From positions 1 to 23,627 of the IMG/VR virus record IMGVR_UViG_3300021960_000518: 23,627 nucleotides of DNA, one strand, 5' to 3'. Under the pieces are notes generated by a model. That model did no database searches and was not told where the DNA came from. It saw nothing but the letters and a program-made list of their open reading frames with translations. Below, piece by piece: positions 11,510 to 16,976 of this stretch (position 1 is the stretch's first letter; each line of letters begins with the position of its first letter). Made by a program: the position numbers and the translations under genes. The stretch is from a virus.

Positions 11510-11883
11510 TCGGTTGGTAATTGATCTGGTTTAACTATGTATATCTTCGGCGGTTCTCCACGAACATCAAGATCGTTCTCGCGCCAACCTGCTTGAGTTT
11601 TGAGATAGAAAATAGCAGCGGTGATATTACCTCTGCGCGCCTGATTTATAAGATTTGCGCCAACTCCTGCGATAGCTTTTGCTCTACCCTTTTGATAAGC
11701 CTCAGAAACTTCAGGCTGACGGCCTTCAATTTGGCGAAATGTATTCTCCGATACATTGAAATAATCAGATAGCTGGCCTTTTGTCAGCACGGCAGAAAGT
11801 TGTTCAACGAGTTTAACTTGCTGCTCGTCAAAGATTATAGGCGGTCTACCGCCTCCATCACCTTGATTACCGTTTTTCAACAC
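11506..11883 (-). CDS. terS: Terminase small subunit candidate
   Basis: 125 residues. The codon at 11883 is GTG; a TTG three bases further (11880) is better spaced from the GAGG ribosome site, so the first residue is uncertain. The middle shows a helix-turn-helix (LSAVLTKGQLSDYFNVSENTFRQIE, residues ~30-54), followed by a helical region with NLINQARRGNITAAIFYLKTQAGW. That last motif is characteristic of small terminase-like HTH proteins that sit before TerL. It recognises packaging sites and stimulates the large subunit. The start lies 17 nt inside the methyltransferase gene and the stop overlaps TerL by 4 nt, so these three genes should be co-translated. Confidence 0.8.
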   Translation of the reverse strand: MLKNGNQGDGGGRPPIIFDEQQVKLVEQLSAVLTKGQLSDYFNVSENTFRQIEGRQPEVSEAYQKGRAKAIAGVGANLINQARRGNITAAIFYLKTQAGWRENDLDVRGEPPKIYIVKPDQLPTE

Positions 11884-13093
11884 TTACCTCGGCAAATGTT
11901 TTATTGGAAGATTCAAGAACAGCTTGTTTGCCAGTGAAGTCTTGCCATCGATTGATTATTACATCGCAATATTTTGTATCAATTTCCATCAATCTTGCTA
12001 TTCTTCCATTTTTTTCAGCAGCTATCATTGTTGTTCCAGAGCCGCCAAAACTATCCAAAACAATATCGCCACCTTTAGTATTATTTAGCATGCAATATTC
12101 AAATAATTCAACAGGCTTCATAGTTGGATGTTTTTCGCTTTTTGATGGTCTATTAAATTCAAGAATAGTTGTTTGCTTTCTATCCGATGACCATAAGTGC
12201 CCAGCCCCATCTTTCCATCCATATAAGCATGGTTCATGTTGCCAATGATAATCTTGTCTTCCCATAACCATTGATTGCTTTTTCCATATCAAACATTGAC
12301 GAACTTTCCAGTCGGTATCTTTTGCAGCACCTCTGAAATTGTATCCTTCTGAATCAGCATGCCAAATGTAGAATACTGCACCAGATTTCATTATTGTATT
12401 TGCAGCAACATAAGAATCTCTTAAAAATTGTCTAAATTGATCATCACCCATTGAATCATTTTTTATAGTTAAGGCATCTTTAGTTTTTCCTTCATACGCA
12501 ACATTATAAGGAGGATCAGTAAGCCACATATCAACAAGTTGTCCACATAATTGTTCTATATGCTCAATGCTTGTGCTATCCCCACACATTAGCCGATGAT
12601 TGCCCATAATCCAAATATCGCCCGGCTTAGTTATTGGATTATCTGGCAAATCAGGAACTTCATCCTCGTCAGTCAAACCATCGACTTTTTCCGGCTCTAG
12701 CAGTTTGGCTAGTTCGTCAGAATCAAATCCAATCAAATTGAGATCAAAATCTGTTTCTTGAAGCGCAGCAAGTTCCGTAGATAATATTTGTATATCCCAA
12801 TCGGCATTTAATGCCAATTTGTTATCAGCAATGACATAAGCCTTACGTTGCGATTCCGTCAAATGGCTAGCTTCTACTGTAGGAACTTTTTCCATGCCTA
12901 GCTTTTTAGCAGCAAGCAAGCGTCCGTGACCAGCAATAATCCCATTGCTTCCATCAACGATAATCGGATTAAGAAAGCCAAATTCCTTAATGCTAGCAGC
13001 GATCTGAGTCACTTGGGCATCAGAATGAGTGCGCGAGTTCATGACATAGGGAATTAATGATTCGACAGGAATTTGCGTAATTTGCACTACCAT
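11867..13093 (-). CDS. ParB-like domain fused to DNA N4/N6 methyltransferase
   Basis: 408 residues, ATG start. Residues ~1-125 are a ParB/sulfiredoxin-like nuclease fold: IPVESLIPYVMNSRTH, then GIIAGHGRLLAAKKLG with the GHGR box at 55-58. The C-terminal ~250 residues are an amino-methyltransferase in beta-class order: DPPY at 193-196 (catalytic), then KHPTMKPVEL at 321-330, then the AdoMet-binding FGGSGTT at 349-355. This fusion is widespread in phages and prophages, often beside the terminase. It likely methylates phage DNA to evade host restriction or to mark DNA for packaging; the target sequence cannot be read from here. No cognate restriction enzyme is seen. The stop overlaps TerS. Confidence 0.9.
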   Translation of the reverse strand: MVVQITQIPVESLIPYVMNSRTHSDAQVTQIAASIKEFGFLNPIIVDGSNGIIAGHGRLLAAKKLGMEKVPTVEASHLTESQRKAYVIADNKLALNADWDIQILSTELAALQETDFDLNLIGFDSDELAKLLEPEKVDGLTDEDEVPDLPDNPITKPGDIWIMGNHRLMCGDSTSIEHIEQLCGQLVDMWLTDPPYNVAYEGKTKDALTIKNDSMGDDQFRQFLRDSYVAANTIMKSGAVFYIWHADSEGYNFRGAAKDTDWKVRQCLIWKKQSMVMGRQDYHWQHEPCLYGWKDGAGHLWSSDRKQTTILEFNRPSKSEKHPTMKPVELFEYCMLNNTKGGDIVLDSFGGSGTTMIAAEKNGRIARLMEIDTKYCDVIINRWQDFTGKQAVLESSNKTFAEVSVEKR

Positions 13094-16129: not shown

Positions 16130-16173
16130 TGTCTTATCTTCAGTTGAGACAGCACCGCGCTGCCTATGAGTCT

Positions 16174-16201
16174 ATTATCAATATTTTAACAATAATGTAA
16201 A
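16174..16201 (-). promoter_or_regulatory. Leftward sigma70-type promoter
   Basis: Minus strand TTTACA (16201-16196), 16-nt spacer, GATAAT (16179-16174). Each hexamer matches the sigma70 consensus at 5 of 6 positions. It lies in a very AT-rich stretch about 45 bp upstream of the gene at 15830-16129, giving a start near 16167. It would feed the whole leftward block. A palindromic operator candidate lies about 50 bp upstream. Confidence 0.6.
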
Positions 16202-16247
16202 GCATTTTTTAATGTTTTTTATCATTTTTTTATGTTTTCCCATTATT

Positions 16248-16266
16248 TTGTACAAATTTCGTACAA
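16248..16266. promoter_or_regulatory. Operator-like 19-bp palindrome
   Basis: TTGTACAAATTTCGTACAA: two 9-bp half sites (TTGTACAAA / TTGTACGAA) around a central T, with one mismatch. Size and symmetry fit a dimeric HTH repressor site. It lies upstream of the leftward promoter at 16174-16201. The candidate ligand within the window is the Cro-like protein at 18328-18552; that link is inference. Confidence 0.45.
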
Positions 16267-16301
16267 TTTATCGTTTTTTTGAGCCATAGTTCACATTTAG
16301 T

Positions 16302-16686
16302 GGTTAGGGACACCCAACCGACTCATCGTTTAGCTCATGCTACCCTTATAATCCAATGACACCTTATTGCCGGAACCATCGCTATCCTTAGCAAGTGGTC
16401 GCCATCCCCAACGTTTAAGCATAATCGCTTATACGTGTCCACTAACCCGGTTTACTAGCTGAACTTTAGGGTAAGTCAGCTACAGTCCCACTACGCTGAG
16501 ACGCCATTGCTATCCGTTTTTAAAGCAAACGTAGGCATAATTCAGAGTTTCGGTCTGAAATTTATCGCACCGGTCGGCGGTTTTTTGGCAGGAAACGCTA
16601 AAAAGTGGCGGTTTTTTGACACTTTATGCGCTTTATTGACATAAATGAGGAAAATATGGAAAATACCCTAGTCGGGTGTCCTAATT
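16302..16686. ncRNA. Candidate large structured RNA closed by a long-range helix
   Basis: The arm TTAGG-g-ACAC-ccaa-CCGACT (16304-16323) is complementary to AGTCGG-GTGT-CCTAA (16670-16684): 15 base pairs with one 1-nt and one 4-nt bulge, enclosing about 350 nt. Inside are at least six hairpins, the best being TAGCTGA-a-CTT / AAG-TCAGCTA at 16456-16482 and ACGT-t-TAAGC / GCTTA-t-ACGT at 16411-16436. The loop TAGGGTA (16467-16473) can pair with TACCCTA (16664-16670), a possible pseudoknot. The motif GGATAGC-R-ATGG occurs twice on the minus strand (16515-16504 and 16387-16376). Strand is undecided, and I recognise no known RNA family. Confidence 0.35.
16576..16618. repeat. Two direct repeats GGCGGTTTTTTG, 31-bp period
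   Basis: The 12-mer occurs at 16576-16587 and 16607-16618, three helical turns apart. Such spacing suits iteron-like protein sites. The second copy runs into a perfect TTGACA on the plus strand (16616-16621). Confidence 0.5.
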
Positions 16687-16753
16687 TCGTCAGATTTATG
16701 TCGGACTTTAGGGCCTGTCAAGCCCACCGACTTTTGAATTCTTATCTATTTTC

Positions 16754-16789
16754 GGGCAAATGTAAACTTCTTTTACACTCACTTTGCCC
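16754..16789. other. Two-tier stem-loop at the 3' end of the 65-residue gene
   Basis: Outer stem GGGCAAA/TTTGCCC (7 bp) and inner stem TGTAAA/TTTACA (6 bp), with a one-sided 5-nt bulge (CTCAC on the plus strand) and a 5-nt loop. It overlaps the stop codon of the gene at 16779-16976. No U-run follows on either strand, so it is more likely an mRNA 3'-end or processing structure than an intrinsic terminator. Confidence 0.5.
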
Positions 16790-16976
16790 TGTCATTATCC
16801 AGCAGTGACCGCACAAGGCCCCAGGAGGCAATCCAGACCCGTTCTCGCCCAATGGCTCGATAAAAAGCATTGCAAGCTGGACACCACCAGCCGAGTCGTA
16901 AGTTTTCTTCGGCGTTAATAACTTGTTCTGCTTGTTTTCCACAATCACAATCACAATACTCAAGTTCTTCTCGCAT
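16779..16976 (-). CDS. Small Cys-rich (zinc-finger-like) protein
   Basis: 65 residues, ATG start overlapping the upstream small gene by 17 nt. Cysteines: C8, C10, C12 (EYCDCDCGKQ) and C32-x2-C35 (WWCPACNAFYRAIG), a probable zinc site made from a CxC cluster and a CxxC knuckle. The rest (RERVWIASWGLVRSLL) is helical. This frame is preferred to the overlapping 79-residue frame because it gives a sensible protein and couples to its neighbour. Possibly a nucleic-acid-binding regulator in the nin-like block; role unknown. Confidence 0.6.
   Translation of the reverse strand: MREELEYCDCDCGKQAEQVINAEENLRLGWWCPACNAFYRAIGRERVWIASWGLVRSLLDNDRAK

What the first reader, a model, noticed from the sequence alone, without database searches (positions are those of the whole stretch)
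16302..16686. Possible new large structured RNA in a 650-bp non-coding region
A 15-bp long-range helix (16304-16323 with 16670-16684) encloses at least six local hairpins, and the loop TAGGGTA at 16467-16473 can pair with TACCCTA at 16664-16670. A 12-nt motif GGATAGC-R-ATGG is repeated. Such density without coding potential recalls phage-borne ornate RNAs (GOLLD, ROOL classes), but I recognise none of their signatures.
Basis: inference. Interest (0 to 1): 0.7.

Follow-up and report, generated by a model that had tools for sequence, protein, structure and literature searches.

The report
Modular structured RNA of aquatic phages
An apparently empty stretch of this phage genome encodes a real, previously uncatalogued RNA of about 450 bases with a shared front part and an exchangeable back part; relatives occur in dozens of uncultured aquatic phages, and one kind of back part also occurs in cultured Pseudomonas phages, where its job could be tested.

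Summary
The finding is real and larger than reported. The RNA lies on the minus strand, starts at 16731 just below a sigma70-like promoter (16766-16738) and runs to about 16283. A covariance model of its 5' domain, built without the window, finds the window at E=2.4e-12 and one copy in each of about 60 other IMG/VR contigs. No Rfam 15 family matches. The 5' domain is a junction closed by a helix at the start site (GUCGG/CCGAC, compensated as GUGCCGG/CCGGCAC and GUUCCGG/CCGGAAC). It is followed by one of several 3' modules that look unrelated in sequence. In type A, 51 tested pairs are kept in 99.3% of cells, with 48 compensated cells (shuffled mean 16). Modules swap as cassettes: two phages 97% identical over the 5' domain differ completely after +116. 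The window's 3' module resembles type C/W and has relatives. A small zinc-ribbon gene usually lies nearby. One module (E) occurs in about 120 cultured Pseudomonas phage records and 7 Vibrio ones. That the RNA acts in trans, perhaps with that protein, is inferred; a put-like antitermination leader is the main rival. No expression data were available.

The parts
16738..16766 (-). sigma70-like promoter TTTACA-17-AAGAAT, 6 nt before the RNA start
   Evidence: hexamer pair ending 5-8 nt before the first RNA base in 17 of 18 non-redundant loci;
16283..16731 (-). the structured RNA; the 3' end is approximate
   Evidence: R1 match 16731-16655, 49.2 bits, E=2.4e-12, model built without the window; shared 3' terminal motif
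16573..16731 (-). 5' junction domain; outer helix 16731-16724 with 16580-16573
   Evidence: distal closing helix folds 9 kcal/mol better than the near pairing; the outer helix is compensated in L087, L101, L103, L116
16638..16702 (-). P2 arm, GACATAAAT 16702-16694 with ATTTATGTC 16646-16638
   Evidence: own pairing better than every cross-pairing for the window; p=1.5e-5 over 17 sequences
16671..16677 (-). ACCCGAC motif in the P2 loop, invariant in the 19 aligned 5' domains
   Evidence: one substitution in L080
16596..16630 (-). extra hairpin of the window RNA, 16630-16620 with 16607-16596
   Evidence: window only
16283..16572 (-). 3' module of C/W-like type
   Evidence: motifs shared with L088, L091 and C-type read by eye; local alignment W against C2 z=3.4, against C z=1.8
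16302..16448 (-). probable long-range helix, GGGTTAGTGGACAC 16448-16435 with GTGTCCCTAACC 16313-16302
   Evidence: -17.4 kcal/mol for the two strands alone; GGACAC/GUGUCC recurs in L091 and L088
   Evidence: -22.5 kcal/mol; no clear counterpart in relatives
16283..16294 (-). 3' terminal motif GTGAACTATGGC, compare GACAACTATGG in C-type relatives
16779..16976 (-). gene of a 65-aa zinc-ribbon protein upstream of the RNA, candidate partner
   Evidence: family CxCG...CPxC; near the RNA in 52 of 72 loci, several of them truncated; partnership inferred
16174..16201 (-). second promoter-like site TTTACA-16-GATAAT between the RNA and the next gene
   Evidence: consensus match only

Best explanation
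It is a modular structured RNA made from its own promoter at the head of the phage's replication and late gene cluster. Shown by comparison: a 5' junction domain that begins at the predicted start site, followed by one of several exchangeable 3' modules, at least one of them pseudoknotted. Inferred: it works as an RNA in trans. The 5' domain is a stable platform (the first bases are held in a helix) and the 3' module is the effector, which binds a host or competitor component that differs between phages; this would explain why modules are replaced whole. The neighbouring zinc-ribbon protein is the likeliest partner in a ribonucleoprotein.
For: Family and strand: covariance model; promoter; helix 1 changes only to G-U or U-G. 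Structure: 89 (type A), 91 (P2), 118 and 125 (type C), 127 (outer helix). Exchangeable modules: 74 (A/B swap at +116), 39 (module A without the large 5' domain). Module outside the late-operon setting: 103, 108, 110, 112 (Pseudomonas phages, ahead of a four-cysteine protein gene and tRNA genes). Zinc ribbon on either side of the RNA: 117, 119. In the window the next gene has a promoter-like site of its own: 71.
Against: No expression data. In types A, C and D the RNA runs close to the ribosome-binding site of the next gene and no terminator was found between. The zinc-ribbon gene is 1.5-2 kb away in types C and D and was not found near L080-L083; small zinc ribbons are common in phages. No target is known. 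Single-sequence folding of type A is not better than shuffled.
Confidence: 0.42

Rival explanations
1. Cis-acting leader for processive antitermination, like HK022 put: the nascent 5' domain binds the host RNA polymerase and lets it read the long gene cluster downstream.
For: Start-site-proximal in nearly all loci; head of a long co-oriented cluster of replication and structural genes in the window and three other genomes; no Phage_antitermQ in 11 records; put RNAs are promoter-proximal and need no phage protein (PMC9378689).
Against: About 450 nt against about 70 nt for put; does not explain whole-module replacement; L055, L065 and L066 lack most of the 5' domain; in PAK_P4 the module precedes a small gene and tRNAs.
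Confidence: 0.25
2. Regulatory leader (riboswitch-like or autoregulatory) of the gene directly downstream.
For: The 3' end lies close to the ribosome-binding site in types A, C and D; in type A the strand GGGC has two alternative partners, both conserved.
Against: Module A precedes different first genes (c2, c22, c88); the window has about 150 nt and a promoter-like site between the RNA and the next gene.
Confidence: 0.15
3. Immunity RNA of the P4 type: the leader RNA acts on the same leader of an incoming relative, and module exchange changes the specificity.
For: Whole-module replacement between close relatives; position at the head of the replication cluster.
Against: No integrase in 11 records and no pattern match in bacterial genomes, so these phages are probably lytic; exact patterns miss divergent members.
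Confidence: 0.1
4. A DNA-level element such as a replication origin, not an RNA.
For: Non-coding and close to replication genes.
Against: Promoter at a fixed distance from the first base; changes in the first helix are all to G-U or U-G on this strand; no GC-skew switch in the window.
Confidence: 0.04

Closest known systems
GOLLD and ROOL RNAs (Rfam; PMC12286853)
   Same: Large, pseudoknotted phage RNAs of unknown function, with one conserved and one less conserved half in GOLLD; often near tRNA genes, as is module E in PAK_P4.
   Different: No Rfam match; shorter (about 350-460 nt); the conserved part is at the 5' end; exchangeable 3' modules; oligomer formation unknown.
HK022 put RNA (PMC9378689)
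   Same: Promoter-proximal structured phage RNA at the head of a phage transcript.
   Different: put is about 70 nt with two stem-loops; no sequence relation and no antitermination shown here.
P4-type immunity leader RNAs (from general knowledge)
   Same: Non-coding RNA from the leader of a replication operon.
   Different: Those are short and belong to temperate or satellite elements; no similarity shown here.

Membership tests
GOLLD, ROOL or any other Rfam 15 family | match to the family covariance model at gathering score | tested here: not met
   at gathering score; at relaxed thresholds
GOLLD / ROOL | homo-oligomeric cage | not testable with these tools
   needs cryo-EM or native gels
HK022 put | about 70-nt two-stem element | tested here: not met
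   the element is far larger and folds as a junction plus a module
HK022 put | suppresses termination in cis without phage proteins | not testable with these tools
   needs transcription assays
The RNA family described here | 5' domain matches R1 | tested here: met
   window E=2.4e-12, model built without it
The RNA family described here | sigma70-like promoter ending 5-8 nt before the first base | tested here: met
   TTTACA-17-AAGAAT, 6 nt
The RNA family described here | 3' module homologous to that of another member | tested here: inconclusive
   shared motifs with L091, L088 and type C but weak alignment scores

The most novel reading that the evidence does not exclude
A new superfamily of modular phage RNAs in which unrelated, independently folding effector domains are exchanged behind a common 5' platform, as specificity domains are in protein systems, and which works with a zinc-ribbon protein against host or competitor machinery.
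Probability: 0.3. Interest if true: 0.92.

Novelty: new variant of a known kind. Interest (0 to 1): 0.76.

Why it matters
Large structured phage RNAs of unknown function such as GOLLD and ROOL are few. This family is spread over many aquatic phages, its module exchange suggests selection on what the 3' part recognises, and one module sits in about 120 cultured Pseudomonas phage records, so RNA-seq, deletion and pull-down tests are possible now.

Tried and rejected
Exact search for the repeated 12-nt motif: one unrelated hit. BLAST against INPHARED with type A, type C, L083 and L103 sequences: none; the window region gave one hit at E=0.7. R1 in five cultured relatives: none, without a positive control among them; PAK_P4 gave only a weak partial hit. 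Bacterial genome contigs: no match to two exact patterns, which would miss divergent members. L047-L049 are chance pattern hits. A first model of P1 (GUCGG with the near CCGAC) was replaced by the distal helix. A pairing of CCCGAC with the 3' end in type A was dropped, since that 3' strand fits CCGCAAA/UUUGCGG. The alignment A2 test of P1 and P3 did not exceed shuffles. The T7-type RNA polymerase search had no ringing control. The zinc-ribbon model was of modest confidence and was not searched further.

Full report
WHAT WAS CHECKED. The gap 16130-16778 has no gene-like ORF. The window is a 23.6-kb IMG/VR virus record; its genes include terminase, portal, major head protein, tape measure, SSB, exonuclease, a Sak-like annealing protein, NinB and NinG. 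The region folds better than shuffled sequence (z -2.55 minus, -1.65 plus). No Rfam family matches.

FIRST RELATIVES. A search with the neighbouring 99-aa protein gave four contigs. In one, L004, the hairpin GTCGGTGGG...CCCTAAA..CCGAC seen on the minus strand of the window recurs in otherwise different sequence. A pattern for it gave 40 contigs, all of which keep a downstream CCCGAC. A covariance model of this 5' domain (R1; 19 sequences, window left out) finds the window at 16731-16655 minus, 49.2 bits, E=2.4e-12, and gives one strong match in each of 57 other loci (two of these loci are the same contig) plus L080 and L091-L095. The model's E-values are rough, and most of those contigs were gathered with a related pattern; the window score and the L091 match are the more independent results. 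Relatives L002 and L003 keep the 99-aa gene without an R1 match, so the RNA is not tied to that gene.

STRAND AND START. In 17 of 18 non-redundant upstream regions the best sigma70-like hexamer pair ends 5-8 nt before the first base of the RNA. In alignment A2 the changes in the first helix are all to G-U or U-G on this strand; the covariation measures of that test did not exceed shuffles.

5' DOMAIN. P2 complementarity is stronger within a sequence than between sequences (mean -16.4 against -12.7 kcal/mol, p=1.5e-5; best of all for the window; the sequences are related, so the p-value is indicative). Divergent members found through NinG show compensated outer helices at the start site: GUCGG/CCGAC, CUGUCGG/CCGACAG, GUGCCGG/CCGGCAC, GUUCCGG/CCGGAAC, AGUGCCGG/CCGGCACU. 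These were read by eye. In the window the same helix is GUCGGUGG (16731-16724) with CCGCCGAC (16580-16573), 9 kcal/mol better than the near pairing.

3' MODULES. Types A, B, C/W, D and E were told apart. Local alignments between most types do not exceed shuffles; weak signals remain for C2 with W (z 3.4) and B with D2 (z 3.2). In type A (18 sequences), 51 pairs in 10 helices including pseudoknots have 99.3% of cells paired and 48 cells changed on both sides (shuffled 16.3, sd 4.0; slid structures 0-4), with covariation score 0.147 against 0.059. The helices were chosen by inspection of the same sequences and poorly aligned ones were left out, so the count leans towards the structure. In type C (6 sequences) GAGGAC/GUCCUC varies as GAUGGC/GCCAUC and GAUAGGC/GCCUAUC, and GGUGACC/GGUCACC as GGUGAUCC/GGAUCACC.

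MODULE EXCHANGE. L036 (B) and L012 (A) are 96.9% identical from -71 to +116, without detectable similarity beyond, and alike again from +1249 and +491. The B cassette of L013 and L036 also carries an HNH endonuclease gene. L055, L065 and L066 carry module A behind a short hairpin instead of the large 5' domain.

CULTURED PHAGES. Part of the L081 module matches 119 Pseudomonas and 7 Vibrio phage records at E<=0.01, mostly where no gene is annotated. In PAK_P4 it follows an annotated putative promoter and precedes a four-cysteine protein and tRNA genes. GCUGU/ACAGC in L081 and PAK_P4 corresponds to GCGAU/AUCGC in Vibrio phage 1.082.O (read by eye).

CONTEXT. The RNA heads a long co-oriented cluster in the window and in three other genomes. 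No integrase or Phage_antitermQ was found in 11 records, which may be fragments. A zinc-ribbon gene lies within a few kb of the RNA in 52 of 72 loci, several of which are truncated.

MECHANISM. Shown: the RNA is conserved, structured and modular (existence of the family about 0.95). Inferred: action in trans with a protein partner (0.42), put-like leader (0.25), regulation of the next gene (0.15), immunity RNA (0.1). No earlier description was found in the paper searches made here, which cover open-licence papers only.

Noticed in passing
L016/L076 and other type A loci, about 40-65 nt upstream of the RNA start: A terminator-like hairpin with a T run on the strand opposite to the RNA lies just above the promoter.
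   Followed up: partly
window 16266-16248: Palindrome TTGTACGAAATTTGTACAA between the RNA and the second promoter-like site, possibly an operator.
   Followed up: no
L013 and L036, about +340 to +1000 from the RNA start: HNH endonuclease gene inside the exchanged B cassette, a possible driver of the exchange.
   Followed up: partly
L081:1026-1119 minus: Partial match to Rfam isrG, 33.8 bits, well below its gathering score of 100.
   Followed up: no
L125:3587-3612: In PAK_P4, between two tRNA genes, a hairpin with the loop ACCCGACAAG resembling the 5' domain motif; weak R1 match.
   Followed up: no
L003:4000-4700: A different GC-rich non-coding stretch with repeated GAGCGAGCGYTCGATCGATG-like units upstream of the 99-aa gene homologue.
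   Followed up: no
window 11867-13093: Fusion of a ParB-like domain with a DNA methyltransferase.
   Followed up: no
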